Below are positions 348-5,711 of a stretch of DNA of 5,711 nucleotides, piece after piece. The DNA is from Candidatus Lindowiibacteriota bacterium (GTDB lineage: Bacteria > Lindowbacteria > 2-12-FULL-62-27): the NCBI GenBank assembly GCA_023249255.1, contig JAHFCY010000209.1, forward strand, positions 1-5,711. Reading direction: 5' to 3'. Each line of letters starts with the position of its first letter. The stretch's first letter is position 1. Under the pieces are notes generated by a model, which did no database searches, was not told where the DNA came from, and saw only the letters and a list, made by a program, of their open reading frames with translations. The translations under genes and the position numbers were made by a program.

Positions 348-1061
348 TCACTTCGTCGCGGTTTCCAAATCATATACCAACTGTTTGATGTTCGTAACGT
401 AGAATTTCTTTATGTCGTCCCACTTCGGCCGGTAGTCTCCGATGTATTCGGGACTCACGTCGCTTTCGGCGTCGGCGAAATAGACCAGCGACTTTCCAAC
501 ACCGACCGGATTGATCTTCGTCGCGCCATATTTCTTGACAAAACAAGCGCAGGCCTTTCGAAATGGCAGGTCCCTCAAAATGAAAAACAAATCCACAAAA
601 TCCCTCTTTGTGCCCCTCTGGTAGATGGCCAATAGTTTCATCGCCGCGATATCCCGAATACCGGCCATCTTCACCCCGGAATATTTTACGATTTCTTCGA
701 ATGAAATATACGGCAGCCGGAAGTACGAAAACTTCGCCTTGTCCGTCTTGAGCAACAGCGTTCCGTTTCCTCGTTGGAGAACCTCATACTTTACTCCGGA
801 ACGATCGATGTCTTTCAGAACAGAGCCGGCATCGAATGCCCGTTTTGTGAAAAAATCCAAGTCATAGGATATCCTGTGACCCAGTTGCAACGCCAGCGCC
901 GTTCCTCCAGCCAGAACAAAATCGTATTTTTTGGCGAGCCGGGTCAGGCGGGCGAGAAGACCTTTGCAGCCTGCCGACAAGGCTTCAGGATGCACGACCG
1001 CCGCCAAACCATATCCGCCAGAAATTCTTCGATTGCTCGCTGATTTTTCGGCTTGTCTCAC
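348..1061 (-). CDS. AbiEii/AbiGii-family nucleotidyltransferase (toxin-like)
   Basis: This 237-residue protein is a member of the nucleotidyl-transferase AbiEii/AbiGii toxin family (DNA polymerase beta-like fold). In AbiE systems such proteins act as the toxic NTase of type IV-like toxin-antitoxin/abortive infection modules. Motifs visible: HPEALS near residue 24, AGGT at 51-54 (nucleotide-binding GG-T), GHRISYDLDF at 61-70 with the metal-binding pair D67/D69, and the family's third motif at 139-159, with K142, R149, K152, D154 and D157 in AAMKLLAIYQRG-TKRDFVDL. All expected catalytic positions look intact. The GTG at 1061 has GAGG only two bases upstream, a poor spacing. The GTG at 995 (just before HPEALS, where family members usually begin) is an equally credible start and would shorten the overlap with the upstream gene from 77 to 11 bases. 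It is probably cotranscribed and translationally coupled with that gene. Stop TGA is at 350-348. Confidence 0.87.
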   Translation of the reverse strand: MRQAEKSASNRRISGGYGLAAVVHPEALSAGCKGLLARLTRLAKKYDFVLAGGTALALQLGHRISYDLDFFTKRAFDAGSVLKDIDRSGVKYEVLQRGNGTLLLKTDKAKFSYFRLPYISFEEIVKYSGVKMAGIRDIAAMKLLAIYQRGTKRDFVDLFFILRDLPFRKACACFVKKYGATKINPVGVGKSLVYFADAESDVSPEYIGDYRPKWDDIKKFYVTNIKQLVYDLETATK

Positions 1062-1371
1062 AGACCTCGATCAAAAACCCGGCCGAATGAATCTTCTGTA
1101 ACCATTCAACCGCATCCATCCGTCCGAGTTCGAGCAGACGTTCGGCGACATACCGGCCGTGTTTCTTCGGCTTGATCTTTTCGGCGTTCGTGTCCCAGAA
1201 ATAGGGATGGAGCCACCTCGGCAGCCGGTTGCGCTCCGCCGCCGCCCTCATCAGGGCGGTGGCTTTGGGACCATCAATCGCGCCGATATAGCGGTGGACG
1301 GTTTTCCCGTTCTCCCGGGCCGCCGTGTATACATATTTCTTCCTCCCGATTTCCTTAACAACGATGCTCAA
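985..1371 (-). CDS. Small accessory/antitoxin-like protein preceding the AbiEii gene (DUF6922-like C-terminal half)
   Basis: This 128-residue protein starts at TTG 1371-1369. The start is supported by GAGGA at 1382-1378, six bases upstream. Residues 5-32 hold a 'KYVYTAARENGKTVHRYIG' element of the type seen at the N-terminus of many small prokaryotic DNA-related proteins. Residues 55-123 run HPYFWD, then an amphipathic segment RYVAERLLELGRMDAVEWL, then ETSRKIS and SKNFWRIWFG. This FWD...GR-x-DAV-x-WL...SR-x-IS...NFW pattern is what I associate with DUF6922-type proteins encoded directly upstream of AbiEii-like nucleotidyltransferases; the family name is from memory and unverified. The position, the overlap with the toxin-like gene and the small size suggest an antitoxin or regulator. 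It does not show an AbiEi winged-helix, so the mode of inhibition is unknown. The protein ends WFGGGRAS, and its stop codon lies inside the next gene. Confidence 0.75.
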   Translation of the reverse strand: MSIVVKEIGRKKYVYTAARENGKTVHRYIGAIDGPKATALMRAAAERNRLPRWLHPYFWDTNAEKIKPKKHGRYVAERLLELGRMDAVEWLQKIHSAGFLIEVCETSRKISEQSKNFWRIWFGGGRAS

Positions 1372-1620: not shown

Positions 1621-2073
1621 ATGTTTTCAACCAAATGCCGGTACGCGATCAAAGCGGTGGTGGTTCTGGCGCGGGCGGAGCAAGCGGGGCAGGAGAAGGG
1701 TGTTCGCATCCGGGACCTGGCCAGGACGTCACATCTTCCGGGGGCGTACCTTGCCAAGATCGTCTGCGAGCTGGCGCGGGCGGGTGTGGTGACGACCGCC
1801 AAGGGTCCCGGCGGCGGCGTGCGGCTGGCTCGCGCGGCGGAGAAGATCACTCTCAGCGACGTCGTGGAAGCCGTCGACCGGGTGGATGGGTCCCGGCGGT
1901 GCGTACTGGAGTTCAAGCCGTGCAGTGAAGTCAAATTCTGTCCGCTGCACCGGACCTGCAAGCACATCCGCGAACGGATATTGAAACAATCCACGTTCAA
2001 GAATCTCTGCCGGGCATACGATCGCTGCTTTCCGGGGGCGAAGCAGCCGCCGGTTACGGTTAAGGCAATGTAG
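1621..2073 (+). CDS. Rrf2-family transcriptional regulator with IscR-like cysteines
   Basis: This 150-residue protein is a typical length for Rrf2 regulators, which are dimeric winged-helix proteins that sense Fe-S status, NO or redox. MFSTKCRYAIKAVVVLAR at the N-terminus is the family signature, and residues 27-56 form the helix-turn-helix (VRIRDLARTSHLPGAYLAKI). Residues 61-70 (KGPGGGVRLA) are the wing with its conserved G-P-GG, and TLSDVVEAVD at 77-86 begins the dimerisation helix. C94, C101 and C107 followed by PLH match the three-cysteine-plus-His cluster-ligand arrangement of IscR/NsrR-like members, here C-x6-C-x5-C-x2-H. Further cysteines lie at 6, 49, 113, 130 and 136. The start is chosen by the Shine-Dalgarno site and the family N-terminus. 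It is transcribed divergently from the AbiEii-like unit and on the same strand as the secreted-protein genes that follow 97 bases later; whether it controls them cannot be told from the sequence. A T8 tract follows at 2087-2094 with no convincing stem. Confidence 0.9.
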   Translation: MFSTKCRYAIKAVVVLARAEQAGQEKGVRIRDLARTSHLPGAYLAKIVCELARAGVVTTAKGPGGGVRLARAAEKITLSDVVEAVDRVDGSRRCVLEFKPCSEVKFCPLHRTCKHIRERILKQSTFKNLCRAYDRCFPGAKQPPVTVKAM

Positions 2074-2170: not shown

Positions 2171-3379
2171 ATGTTTCGTCGGCGAATGGATCAGATGGGA
2201 GTTGATTTGAAAAATCGGACTCATATAGAGACCAATCTCATCGCAGACCTGAGTGTGGCATTCAATATTATCATCGTGGCTGCGGCATGCTGTCTGCTCC
2301 CGATTGCCCCCGCCTGCCGGACGGGCAGGGATTGCCCATTGCCGATTGCCGTCCAAATGGCCGAAGCCGCCCAAATCCTGAACGGTTCCCTCGCTGATAT
2401 CCATGGAGATGTCAAAATCCAGCGCAGCGGGTCATCCATCGCGTCGCCCGCCCGATCCGGCTCGCGCGTGGAGCCGGGCGACGCCGTCATCACCGGCCAG
2501 TCCGGCCGCGCCGCCATCAAATTCGAGCATGGCCAAATCGACCTCGACAACGCCACGCGCCTCACGCTTCTAAGGTGCATGTCGAGCCACGACGAATCAT
2601 TTGCCGAACTGGCGCTTTCGGACGGCGCTGTCACGGCCCTTATTAATATGGAGAGAGGCAAAGAGTTTTGGTTTGACATCATCACCCCGACGAAGAGCGC
2701 TCGCGGGCGCGGAAACAAAAAGGGCGTGGCGCATCTGGCCGTGTCTCATCGATCCGGCACAACCGTCACGGACAGCGAGGTCGGGCAGTGGCAGTATCAA
2801 CCCATCATGTTGCCGGATCAGCCGCCGGCTGTTCAGGCCGCGCTGACGAACAACGCCAAAGCGTCCGTTCTGCTCAAGGATTATATCGGGACTACCCTGA
2901 ACCAGAACACATTGGGCGCGTACGAAGTTCGGCGAGCGGCGGGCGAGCCGGATATCGGCCTGTTTGCGCCGTCAAACACCGCGGCACCCGTCATCAGCGG
3001 GACTGCAAAGATCGGCGGGAAACTCACGTGCAGTCCGGGCAAATGGATCGGCAATCTTCCGCCCACATTCAAATTCCAGTGGCTCCGGGACGGCAAGGAA
3101 ATCTCCGGCGCGACCGATGAGTCTTACACCGTCGTTGAGGACGACGGCCTTCACAAGATCAGTTGCAAGGTGACCGGGACGAACGAGACCGGCGAAAGTT
3201 CGGCAACCAGCAATGAAGTCGGCGTCGAGGTCGAGAAGCCCAAGCCCGCCGAACCTGAAACTCCCCCCGCGCCCGCCCCGGCGGTCGTGCCGCCTCTTTC
3301 TCTGACGATCACGCTACAGGAAGGAAAAGGCGCGATGATGTCGAGTTCATCGACTGCGACGTCGGCCGAAACAAAATAA
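2171..3379 (+). CDS. Exported FecR-domain protein with a C-terminal Ig-like domain
   Basis: This 402-residue protein has a long, poorly conserved-looking N-terminus. Met1, Met6 (2186) and Met9 (2195) are all possible starts and none has a strong ribosome site. Residues 30-48 ([19 protein letters not shown]) form a signal-type hydrophobic segment; the Cys pair could also make it a lipoprotein. Residues about 70-210 look like a FecR domain: [70 protein letters not shown]. The usual VRGT-like motif is altered to GRGN. Residues 272-350 form one Ig-like domain with C287, W304 and C332, closely resembling the repeats of the next gene. Residues 357-375 are Pro/Ala-rich and the tail is Ser/Thr-rich. 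In other bacteria FecR domains occur in sigma-factor regulators and in free-standing exported structural proteins; with no sigma factor here the latter is more likely. It is one base upstream of the ubiquitin gene, so the two are almost certainly cotranscribed. Confidence 0.8.
2313..2329. repeat. Short palindrome with flanking GATTGCC repeats inside the FecR-like gene
   Basis: CCTGCC-GGACG-GGCAGG is a perfect 6-base stem with a 5-base loop. It is flanked by GATTGCC at 2302-2308, 2330-2336 and 2344-2350. It falls just after the hydrophobic segment and encodes the odd stretch [13 protein letters not shown]. The arrangement looks like a small mobile palindrome or slippage product in the signal-peptide region; the sequence alone does not prove this. 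Confidence 0.4.
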
Positions 3380-3380
3380 T

Positions 3381-3476
3381 ATGCCGGCGCGTTTGAGAGT
3401 TTCCCAAAAAATCGGATTTCTGATCCTCGCGGCCGCGTGTTTTCTGTCGGTCGTTCCCATCGACATCGCCCATGCG
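3381..3476 (+). other. Signal peptide of the ubiquitin fusion protein
   Basis: The 32 residues comprise a basic start (R4, R6, K10), a hydrophobic core I11-V25 and a c-region ending A30-H31-A32, a good signal peptidase I site. Cleavage after A32 would leave the ubiquitin Met1 (M33) as the mature N-terminus. LAAAC at 16-20 is a weaker, alternative lipobox. The neighbouring FecR-like protein has a similar VAAACC core. Confidence 0.8.
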
Positions 3477-5711
3477 ATGCAAATTTTCGTCAAGACTTTG
3501 AATGGAAAAACCATTACGCTTGACGTGGAGTCGTCCGACAGTATCGAGAACGTAAAGGCCAAAATTCAGGATAAAGAAGGACTGGTTCCATCGAGCCAGC
3601 GGCTGATCTTCGCCGGCAAAGAGCTTGAGGACGGCCGAACCCTCTCCGACTACAATATCCGGAAGGAATCGACGATTCATCTGGTGCGCCGCGACTCCTC
3701 GACGCAAACGACGGCGGCGAAGCCTTCGCTGGAGCTATGGGTCTACGCTGGCGCGACGTTCAAAGCGGTGTCGGCCGGCGGCGTGCCGCCGTATTCTTAT
3801 TCGCTGTCCGCGAACAATTCCGGCGGGAAAATATCCGCCGACGGAATTTACACCGCAGGTTCGACGTTCGACGTGGCCGACGTCATCCGGGTCACCGACG
3901 TGAACAGCACGTTCCTTGAATGCCGGGCCAATGTCCGGGCGGGGTTGGGCATCACCCCGGCGACGTCGAAGGTTGTGCCGGGCGGGCCGCAGAAATTCGA
4001 CGGGTCGGGCGGGTCGGGCAAATATACCTACTCGATTTTACACAACAAATCCGGCGGCGCGATCGACGCGTCGACCGGGGAATACACGGCCGGATCGAAG
4101 ATCGGCGTGTCGGACGTGATTCGAATGACGGACGGAACATCCGAAGTGGACGCAACGGTCAGCGTCGAAGTCGAGAAGCCATCAAACACCGGCGCGCCCA
4201 CAATCAGCGGCACACCAAAGATCGGCGAAAAACTCACGTGCGATCCAGGTGACTGGAGTGGGAATCCGAAGTTCACGTACCAGTGGTTGCGGGATGGCGA
4301 GAAGATCATGGGTGCGGACGAGGAGAAATACACGACGACCGCAGACGACGACATGAAAAAGATCTCATGCGAAGTGACCGCAACGAACTCGGGCGGTTCG
4401 ACGTCGACGGTCTCAAACGAGATCGTGCCGAAGATGCAGGCGCCGGTCAACGCCGGCGGAGCCGGACTGCCAAAGATATCGCCCTCGGAACCCACGGTCG
4501 GGGATGTCCTGACGTGCAATCCGGGCAAGTGGAGCGGGGATCCGAAGTTCACGTACCAGTGGTTGCGGGATGGCTCAAAGATCGACGGCGCGGACGGGGC
4601 GACGTACACGACAACCGATGCCGACGACATGAAGAAGCTCAAATGCGAAGTGACCGCGACAAATTCTGGCGGCTCGAATTCCGCCATCTCAAACGTTGTC
4701 GTGCCGAAGATGCTGGCACCGGTGAACGCCGGCGGAACCGCGATGCCGAAGATATCGCCCTCGGAACCTACGGTCGGAAACGTTCTGACGTGCAATCCGG
4801 GCAAGTGGAGCGGGGATCCGAAGTTCGCGTACCAGTGGCTGCGGGATGGCGAGAAGATCAAGGGCGCGGACGAGGCGACGTATACGACGGCCGAGGTCGA
4901 CGACATGAAAAATATCTCATGCGAAGTGACGGCGACAAATTCTGGCGGCTCGAATTCCGCTATCTCAAACCATGTCGTGCCGAAGATGTCGGCGCCGGTG
5001 AACGCCGGCGGAACCGCGATGCCGAAGATATCGCCCGTCGAACCGACGGTTGGCGGTGTTCTGACGTGTAATCCGGGCAAGTGGAGCGGGAATCCGAAGT
5101 TCGCGTACCAGTGGTTGCGCGATGGCTCAAAGATCGACGGCGCGACCGATGCGACATACACGACGACCGCGGACGACGATATGAAAAATATATCGTGCGA
5201 AGTGACTGCAACAAACTCGGGCGGATCAAAGTCGGCAATCTCAAACGAGGTCGTGCCGAAGATGTCTGCGCCGGTGAATGACAAGTCGGCGTTGCCGAGG
5301 ATAACGCCCTCGCAACCTACGGTTGGCGATGTCCTGACGTGCAATCCGGGAACTTGGAGCGGCGATCCGAAGTTCGCGTACCAGTGGTTCCGGAACGGCG
5401 AGAAGATTCCGGGCGCGGACGAAGAGAAATTCACGACGACCGAGGCCGACGACATGAAGAAGCTCAAATGCGAAGTGACCGCGACAAACTCGGGCGGCAC
5501 AAAGTCGGCAATCTCGAACGAGGTCGTGCCGAATATGTCGGGGCCGATAAACGACAAGTCCGCGATGCCGAAGATATCGCCACCGGAACCTACGGTCGGG
5601 GACGTTCTGACGTGTGACCGGGGCAAGTGGAGTGGGAATCCGAAGTTCGCGTACCAGTGGTTGCGGGACGGAGAGAAGATCACGGGCGCGACCGATGCGA
5701 CATACACGACG
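3381..5711 (+). CDS. Secreted ubiquitin-domain protein with bacterial Ig-like repeats (3' end beyond window)
   Basis: There are 777 codons from ATG 3381 to the window edge, open without a stop. The upstream gene stops at 3379, so translation probably reinitiates (TAA-T-ATG); no Shine-Dalgarno is visible, and an in-frame TGA at 3336 with no start between leaves 3381 as the start. Domains in order: signal peptide 1-32; ubiquitin 33-104; Ser/Thr linker 105-115; two bacterial Ig-like domains about 116-187 and 189-264, each with a YS-x-NxSGG-x-I-x-A-x-G-x-YTAG core; then Ig-like repeats of 91-92 residues from 271 onward, the sixth cut by the edge. Each complete repeat has LTC...W-S-G...YQW-R-G...[10 protein letters not shown] with the two Cys 43 residues apart. 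The protein is predicted to be exported and probably displayed at the surface or released. The ubiquitin lacks a C-terminal Gly-Gly and is internal, so it cannot be activated in the usual way. Function is unknown; ligand mimicry or use as a stable tip domain are both possible. Confidence 0.93.
3477..3692 (+). other. Eukaryote-like ubiquitin domain
   Basis: Residues 33-104 align without gaps to human ubiquitin 1-72, with 12 differences: T9N, E16D, P19S, T22S, I36L, P37V, D39S, Q40S, Q49E, Q62R, L67I and L71R. That leaves 60 of 72 identical. Met1, Lys6/11/27/29/33/48/63, the Leu8-Ile44-Val70 patch with His68, Ser65 and R72 are all kept. Positions 73-76 are D-S-S-T in place of L-R-G-G. Hand-counted GC is about 50% here against 60-65% in sampled Ig-like repeats downstream, consistent with a different origin. 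The domain is well above the resemblance of prokaryotic beta-grasp proteins such as ThiS, MoaD or SAMPs. Confidence 0.96.
3726..4172 (+). repeat. Two tandem bacterial Ig-like domains (type with YTAG motif)
   Basis: The copies span about 3726-3941 and 3945-4172. Shared elements are GG-x-P/K-Y-x-YS, N-x-SGG-x-I, Y-TAGS and DVIR-x-TD. The first copy is more diverged, with a Cys (C181) where the second has none. Together they form a spacer between the ubiquitin and the Cys-containing repeat array. Confidence 0.75.
4191..5711 (+). repeat. Tandem Ig-like repeats of 273-276 bases (five complete, sixth partial)
   Basis: Units begin at 4191, 4464, 4740, 5016, 5289 and 5562. The first conserved Cys codon lies at 4239, 4515, 4791, 5067, 5340 and 5613, a spacing of 276, 276, 276, 273 and 273 bases. 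Units 2 and 3 are nearly identical at the DNA level across the [11 protein letters not shown] block, which points to recent duplication or gene conversion. Linkers vary between PVNAGG and P(V/I)NDKS. Every complete unit has a Cys-Trp-Cys layout like a disulfide-bonded Ig fold. The array continues past the window, so the total copy number is unknown. Confidence 0.92.

What the first reader, a model, noticed from the sequence alone, without database searches (positions are those of the whole stretch)
3477..3692. A near-eukaryotic ubiquitin encoded in a bacterial secreted protein
The sequence directly shows a gap-free match to human ubiquitin at 60 of 72 positions, with all seven lysines, Met1 and the Ile44 patch intact. 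Ubiquitin this close to the eukaryotic form is very rare in bacteria; I recall a secreted ubiquitin in Bacteroides fragilis as the known precedent. Lateral acquisition from a eukaryote is the simplest inference, and the lower GC of this segment fits.
Basis: partly seen in the sequence, partly recalled or inferred. Interest (0 to 1): 0.97.

Follow-up and report, generated by a model that had tools for sequence, protein, structure and literature searches.

The report
Surface-displayed ubiquitin in bacteria
A little-known groundwater bacterium makes large exported proteins whose outermost end is an almost perfect copy of ubiquitin, the tagging protein of animal and plant cells; relatives of this design occur sparsely in at least 17 phyla, anchored to the cell surface in many different ways and sometimes carried by phages.

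Summary
Window 3477-3692 encodes ubiquitin: 60/72 identical to human, gap-free, predicted fold within about 0.5 Å of solved ubiquitin. A signal peptide ends exactly before ubiquitin Met1. The C-terminal LRGG is missing; the chain continues into two beta-sandwich domains and Ig-like repeats, cut by the contig end. It is not a chimera: the same genome has a second copy, and all three held genomes of the phylum (Lindowbacteria) carry the gene (6 copies), usually behind a conserved exported partner gene. 68 of 85 collected loci place Met1 directly at the signal-peptidase site. Behind ubiquitin sit lineage-specific anchors: autotransporter barrel, SLH, IPTL-CTERM, LPXTG, T9SS tail. Some barrels carry ubiquitin as sole passenger. 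Five phage contigs (two types) carry the gene inside phage modules. The GC dip is explained by amino-acid composition. Best reading: a surface-displayed, non-conjugated ubiquitin acting as a binding head; target unknown. Closest precedent is the secreted toxin BfUbb. I rate it a new variant of a known kind.

The parts
3381..5711 (+). Ubiquitin-headed exported protein (777 aa shown, runs off the contig end, C-terminus missing)
   Evidence: Open frame; homologues of 1481-2111 aa frame length in the same family of genomes
3381..3476 (+). Sec signal peptide, aa 1-32, AHA cleavage site directly before ubiquitin Met1
   Evidence: Basic start, hydrophobic core, AxA site; same junction in 68 of 85 loci. 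No dedicated signal-peptide predictor was available
3477..3692 (+). Ubiquitin domain, aa 33-104, no LRGG tail
   Evidence: 60/72 to human, Pfam E 2e-27, AF2 model and Foldseek
3693..3722 (+). Disordered linker after ubiquitin
   Evidence: pLDDT < 50 at model residues 73-82
3729..3938 (+). Beta-sandwich domain 1, conserved in all six Lindowbacteria copies
   Evidence: AF2 model, alignment A2
3948..4166 (+). Beta-sandwich domain 2, similar to domain 1
   Evidence: AF2 model
4176..5711 (+). Run of Ig-like repeats (stalk), cut by the contig end
   Evidence: Pfam Ig_2 / Ig_3 / I-set
2171..3379 (+). Upstream partner gene, stop one base before the ubiquitin ATG: exported protein with a FecR-like region by eye, Ig-like or Pro-rich linker and conserved tail
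   Evidence: Homologue directly upstream of the ubiquitin gene in L007, L008 and L010; only its conserved tail is visible in L009. Pfam FecR not matched
3287..3376 (+). Conserved C-terminal tail of the upstream gene product, [30 protein letters not shown]
   Evidence: Same tail in the window, L007, L008, L009, L010

Best explanation
The gene encodes a cell-envelope protein in which ubiquitin is used as an exported protein-binding head and not as a conjugated tag. The Sec pathway exports the chain, signal peptidase cuts after AHA so that native Met1 becomes the mature N-terminus, and ubiquitin folds at the free outer end of a long stalk of beta-sandwich and Ig-like domains. Relatives use the anchor normal for their lineage (autotransporter barrel, SLH, sortase, IPTL-CTERM, T9SS), which suggests that display of ubiquitin at the surface is the common purpose. 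Since the conjugation tail is missing and the domain is outside the cytoplasm, it most likely acts by non-covalent binding to a partner outside the cell: either a surface or envelope protein of a neighbouring prokaryote (as for the secreted antibacterial BfUbb) or ubiquitin-recognising proteins of protists that graze on the bacteria. Shown by sequence: ubiquitin identity, Met1 at the cleavage site, C-terminal anchors in relatives, purifying selection, phage carriage. Inferred: actual surface exposure, binding as the activity, and the kind of partner. In Lindowbacteria the protein probably works with the exported product of the gene directly upstream.
For: Identity and fold. Met1 at an AxA-type site in 68 of 85 loci, and signal peptide directly before ubiquitin again in the clear hits of an unbiased HMM sample of Verrucomicrobiota, Bacteroidota and Bacillota. 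Anchors by HMM above cut-off: autotransporter L016, L023, L029, L032, L055, L057, L064, L068, L092; SLH L021, L036, L073, L078; sorting tails L031, L051, L070; IPTL-CTERM L022, L048, L062, L075; LPXTG L090. In L023, L029, L064, L068 and L092 only a short stretch separates ubiquitin from the barrel, so ubiquitin is the passenger. Selection: median pS 0.85 against pN 0.13 between loci, dN/dS about 0.24 between the two copies of this genome. Ubiquitin is the best-kept module in Lindowbacteria, 74-86% against 53-75% for the next domain. Conserved gene pair. No E2 found in the three genomes.
Against: The anchor of the Lindowbacteria proteins themselves is not recognised; the window copy lacks its C-terminus and complete homologues end in ..TIDPGKGG or ..IVDPSGGGS. 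No binding partner is known. In the unbiased sample the Ile44 patch is no better kept than average surface (0.77) and the F4/E64/T66 face is kept best (0.97), so binding need not resemble eukaryotic recognition (15 sequences). The E2 search had no positive control in its panel.
Confidence: 0.62

Rival explanations
1. Antagonism between bacteria: the ubiquitin head is the toxic or inhibitory part, as in BfUbb, presented on a stalk or barrel and acting on contact with sensitive relatives. (A specific form of the best explanation.)
For: BfUbb is a signal-peptide-cleaved ubiquitin starting at Met1 that inhibits sensitive B. fragilis strains (PMC5705921). Free secreted forms with Cys-bearing tails occur in Flavobacterium L033, L042 and in L161. 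Sparse, strain-like distribution with decayed copies in Pseudomonas fits a weapon under turnover.
Against: Most fusions are anchored and not free; no toxic activity is known for them; the domain sits at the N-terminus, whereas contact-dependent toxins usually carry the toxin at the C-terminus (general knowledge).
Confidence: 0.35
2. Defence against or manipulation of protists: the displayed ubiquitin is seen by, or blocks, the ubiquitin-recognising machinery of amoebae, ciliates or other hosts. (A specific form of the best explanation.)
For: Closeness to eukaryotic ubiquitin and long purifying selection on it. Many loci come from rumen or freshwater metagenomes rich in protists, by record titles. 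BfUbb binds human E1 covalently and inhibits ubiquitination in vitro (PMC3352274).
Against: Found in groundwater and sediment bacteria and in Methanothrix MAGs with no known host. The E1-facing residues R42 and R72 are among the least kept (0.53), and the tail glycines are usually gone. Habitat counts were not tested against a background.
Confidence: 0.3
3. Passive role: ubiquitin is only a very stable, fast-folding, protease-resistant cap for exported proteins.
For: Attached to many unrelated C-terminal parts; ubiquitin is exceptionally stable (general knowledge).
Against: In several autotransporters ubiquitin is the only passenger. A cap needs no particular surface, yet Q2, F4, E64, T66, T12, T14, K27, K29 and K33 are kept in the unbiased sample. 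Fast folding hinders Sec export (general knowledge).
Confidence: 0.15
4. Artefact: eukaryotic contamination or a chimeric contig.
For: Draft MAG, 366 contigs, 3.9% contamination; a few database hits without signal peptide and with LRGG may be eukaryotic (L025, L026, L044, L082).
Against: Six homologous loci in three genomes with the same junctions. Isolates carry such genes: complete P. protegens FD6 chromosome L093, complete R. albus 7 plasmid L014. Bacterial signal peptide, conserved gene pair and host-matched GC3.
Confidence: 0.01

Closest known systems
BfUbb, secreted ubiquitin of Bacteroides fragilis (PMC3352274, PMC5705921)
   Same: Signal peptide cleaved exactly before Met1; near-eukaryotic ubiquitin; no C-terminal GlyGly; sparse distribution
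   Different: BfUbb is a free 76-residue protein with known antibacterial activity; here ubiquitin is fused to a stalk of 670 or more residues, and in relatives to surface anchors
Eukaryotic ubiquitin and ubiquitin fusions (polyubiquitin, Ub-L40, Ub-S27a)
   Same: Sequence (60/72) and fold
   Different: No LRGG processing site, exported by Sec, fused to extracellular domains, no E2 found in the genome
Bacterial conjugation operons of the Bil type and other prokaryotic E1/E2/JAB systems (general knowledge)
   Same: Ubiquitin-like fold in bacteria
   Different: No E1, E2 or JAB gene seen next to it; exported; no GlyGly tail
Autotransporters, SLH, IPTL-CTERM, sortase and T9SS surface proteins
   Same: Overall plan: signal peptide, N-terminal functional part, C-terminal anchor (relatives)
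   Different: The functional part is ubiquitin; the Lindowbacteria anchor is not identified
Secreted ubiquitin effectors of plant-parasitic nematodes (cited in PMC5705921)
   Same: Exported ubiquitin with an extension
   Different: Eukaryotic, small, processed in the host

Membership tests
Ubiquitin (Pfam PF00240) | Match to the family profile above curated cut-off | tested here: met
   95.1 bits against 25.4
Ubiquitin (Pfam PF00240) | Ubiquitin beta-grasp fold | tested here: met
   AF2 pLDDT about 90 over the domain, 0.3-0.6 Å rmsd to solved ubiquitin
Conjugatable ubiquitin | C-terminal GlyGly exposed or a processing site | tested here: not met
   Ends [12 protein letters not shown], no LRGG
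Conjugatable ubiquitin | E2 enzyme in the genome | tested here: inconclusive
   PF00179 found in 0 of 3 genomes but in no control genome either; one ThiF/MoeB-type E1 homologue above cut-off per genome
BfUbb-type secreted ubiquitin | Signal peptide cleaved directly before Met1 | tested here: met
   By sequence, AHA|MQIF; cleavage itself not measured
BfUbb-type secreted ubiquitin | Free 76-residue protein | tested here: not met
   777 or more residues
BfUbb-type secreted ubiquitin | Antibacterial activity | not testable with these tools
   Needs experiment
Surface-anchored protein | Known C-terminal anchor | tested here: inconclusive
   Window copy truncated; complete Lindowbacteria homologues L008 and L010 show none in Pfam; 21 relatives elsewhere do
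FecR-domain protein (upstream gene) | Pfam FecR match | tested here: not met
   No match up to E = 1; AF2 model too poor to judge (mean pLDDT 45)

The most novel reading that the evidence does not exclude
Prokaryotes of at least 17 phyla share a phage-spread class of surface ubiquitins: one conserved binding head, starting exactly at the signal-peptidase site, mounted on whatever cell-surface anchor the lineage uses, and universal and duplicated in Lindowbacteria. Ubiquitin would then have a second, non-conjugating life as an outward-facing ligand in bacteria and some archaea.
Probability: 0.6. Interest if true: 0.92.

Novelty: new variant of a known kind. Interest (0 to 1): 0.85.

Why it matters
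Ubiquitin of nearly eukaryotic sequence is usually taught as absent from bacteria, with BfUbb as the exception. A recurrent design that displays it outside the cell, kept by strong selection and carried by phages, makes a direct question testable: what outside a bacterium recognises ubiquitin? An answer would bear on competition between bacteria, on grazing by protists and on the use of ubiquitin beyond conjugation. Several carriers are cultured isolates, so gene removal and labelling are feasible.

Tried and rejected
Contamination or chimera: rejected by six homologous loci and isolates. Foreign GC as evidence of recent transfer: rejected, the dip is compositional. Origin by tree: 72 residues do not resolve it; human ubiquitin sits on a near-zero branch inside a star. 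D16/S22 as joint markers of one bacterial lineage: no association (P = 0.45). Intact ubiquitin pathway in Lindowbacteria: no E2 or UCH peptidase found, without positive controls. Sequenced phages in the annotated collection: none at E <= 1e-5. Upstream gene as FecR: not matched by Pfam and the AF2 model failed. Literature: ten searches found BfUbb papers but no description of anchored surface ubiquitins; most subscription journals and all bioRxiv preprints are missing from that library, so novelty is provisional.

Full report
What is there. The window is a whole contig (C266, 5711 bases) of a 3.35 Mb draft genome. On the + strand, ORF 3381-5711 starts with a signal peptide ([32 protein letters not shown]) and continues without a gap into [18 protein letters not shown]..., 60 of 72 residues identical to human ubiquitin with all seven lysines and the Ile44 patch. 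Pfam calls ubiquitin at E = 2e-27 and Ig-like domains behind it. The frame is open to the contig end. AlphaFold2 on six Lindowbacteria sequences gives a ubiquitin fold, a disordered linker (model residues 73-82) and two beta-sandwich domains (mean pLDDT 87); Foldseek places ubiquitin first with 0.3-0.6 Å rmsd. The tail that eukaryotic ubiquitin uses for conjugation is absent ([12 protein letters not shown]).

It is real and conserved in its phylum. The genome has a second copy on another contig (C341), 86% identical in ubiquitin, with the same signal peptide, the same following domain and other Ig-like repeats. Two further genomes of the same phylum are held and both carry it, six copies in all. 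One of those contigs, 121,448 bases, has the same length and ubiquitin protein as MFPR01000041.1 of Candidatus Lindowbacteria bacterium RIFCSPLOWO2_12_FULL_62_27, so the window belongs to that phylum. Ubiquitin is the best-kept module: 74-86% identity among five copies against 53-75% for the next domain; the sixth, L011, is divergent (51%). In four copies (window, L007, L008, L010) the gene directly upstream encodes an exported protein that ends in a conserved tail (PPLSLTVTxxEGKGAVMSSSSTVTS), with its stop within a few bases of the ubiquitin gene; L009 shows only the tail because its contig begins there. It looks like FecR by eye, but Pfam does not confirm it.

The GC argument falls. The ubiquitin segment has 50.5% GC; drawing codons for the same amino acids from the contig's other genes gives 52.3 +/- 1.8% (P = 0.19). 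Across 70 loci GC3 of the ubiquitin segment runs from 10 to 96% and follows the flanking GC with r = 0.87: the genes are adapted to their hosts. Synonymous sites are saturated between loci (median pS 0.85) while proteins stay alike (median pN 0.13), which means long purifying selection in prokaryotes.

Relatives elsewhere. Of 85 loci analysed, 68 have a hydrophobic segment and an AxA-type site directly before Met1. They span at least 17 phyla by record title, among them two Methanothrix MAGs (archaea), and include isolates such as Saccharibacillus, Cohnella, Paenibacillus, Paracidovorax valerianellae, Dyella, Flavobacterium, Pseudovibrio, Loktanella, Conexibacter, Malaciobacter, Rhodopirellula, Leeia and Pseudomonas protegens FD6 (complete chromosome). 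Ruminococcus albus 7 carries one on its plasmid pRUMAL01. Because that scan selects for similarity, I also sampled groups with the Pfam profile alone: Verrucomicrobiota 9 of 287 genomes besides the seed, Bacteroidota 5 of 394, Bacillota 1 clear hit of 397, Pseudomonadota none clear in 397 (one marginal), Pseudomonas about 12 of 297 above cut-off, several of them decayed, weak or lacking a signal peptide. So the gene is sparse but taxonomically very wide, and in the phylum samples the clear hits again show a signal peptide followed directly by ubiquitin.

Architecture. Behind ubiquitin the proteins are mostly unrelated but many end in the surface anchors of their lineages. Of 29 distinct proteins scanned, 21 carry one: autotransporter barrel (nine), SLH (four), T9SS-type tail (three), IPTL-CTERM (four), LPXTG (one). 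In L023, L029, L064, L068 and L092 ubiquitin plus a short linker is all that precedes the barrel, so ubiquitin is the passenger. Free forms exist too (L027, L085 ending LRGG; L033, L042, L161 with Cys-bearing tails; BfUbb also lacks GlyGly). The common reading of these facts is display of ubiquitin at the cell surface.

Phages. In IMG/VR the same kind of gene lies inside phage modules: L149-L151 (ubiquitin with IPTL-type tail) just upstream of small and large terminase, and L152-L153 (ubiquitin-autotransporter) between tail genes and the tape-measure gene. In L152 the cassette is flanked by a 167-base direct repeat, 146 identical, of a tail-gene fragment. This gives a plausible vehicle for the wide, sparse distribution. 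Sequenced phages of the annotated collection gave no hit.

Mechanism. Shown by sequence: export signal, native N-terminus at the cleavage site, no conjugation tail, C-terminal anchors in relatives, selection on the head. Inferred: the head is exposed and works by non-covalent binding. The partner is open. BfUbb shows that an exported ubiquitin can act on other bacteria (PMC5705921) and can also engage human E1 in vitro (PMC3352274); from memory, later work named a peptidyl-prolyl isomerase as the bacterial target, which I could not verify here. In the unbiased sample of 15 sequences the F4/Q2/E64/T66 face (0.97) and the core (0.90) are kept best, the Ile44 patch (0.77) is ordinary and the E1-facing arginines are lax (0.53); this points away from conjugation and away from a simple copy of the main eukaryotic binding face, but the sample is small.

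Origin. The 72-residue tree is a star in which human ubiquitin sits on a near-zero branch. Descent from a eukaryotic ubiquitin is the natural reading of that shape, but neither the number of transfers nor their direction is resolved. For Lindowbacteria a single old acquisition followed by duplication is compatible with the data.

Verdict. The thing is a ubiquitin-headed exported protein, member of a broad and apparently undescribed design. The library searched lacks most subscription journals and bioRxiv preprints, so that last word is provisional.

Noticed in passing
L149-L151, L152-L153: Ubiquitin genes of the exported type lie inside phage head/packaging and tail modules; in L152 the cassette is flanked by a 167-base direct repeat (1907-2073 and 3906-4072).
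   Followed up: partly
L034, L041: Two Methanothrix (archaeal) MAGs carry a signal peptide directly followed by ubiquitin, with similar signal peptides.
   Followed up: no
L164, L168, L167, L169: Pseudomonas genomes also hold small ubiquitins without signal peptide, two ending LRGG or LKGGL; perhaps a separate cytoplasmic class.
   Followed up: no
L060, L061, L080, L084, L087: Actinobacterial genomes and MAGs share a ubiquitin without clear signal peptide fused to a conserved domain (TGVVTYDLMNTTGAPPLG...).
   Followed up: no
window 3287-3376: Conserved 30-residue C-terminal tail of the upstream exported protein, kept in five copies behind a variable Pro-rich linker; possible docking peptide.
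   Followed up: partly
L010 2681-7006 (-): The Lindowbacteria homologue in G002 has two F5/8 type C domains and an NBR1-like Ig domain (PF16158) behind ubiquitin.
   Followed up: no
L009 6566-8950, L010 372-2699: Downstream of two Lindowbacteria ubiquitin genes lies a conserved exported protein with a Gly-rich C-terminus ending KISW.
   Followed up: no
window 348-1371 (-): AbiEii-type nucleotidyltransferase gene (348-1061) overlapping a DUF6922 gene (985-1371): a likely type IV toxin-antitoxin pair.
   Followed up: no
window 1621-2073: Rrf2-family transcriptional regulator upstream of the gene pair.
   Followed up: no
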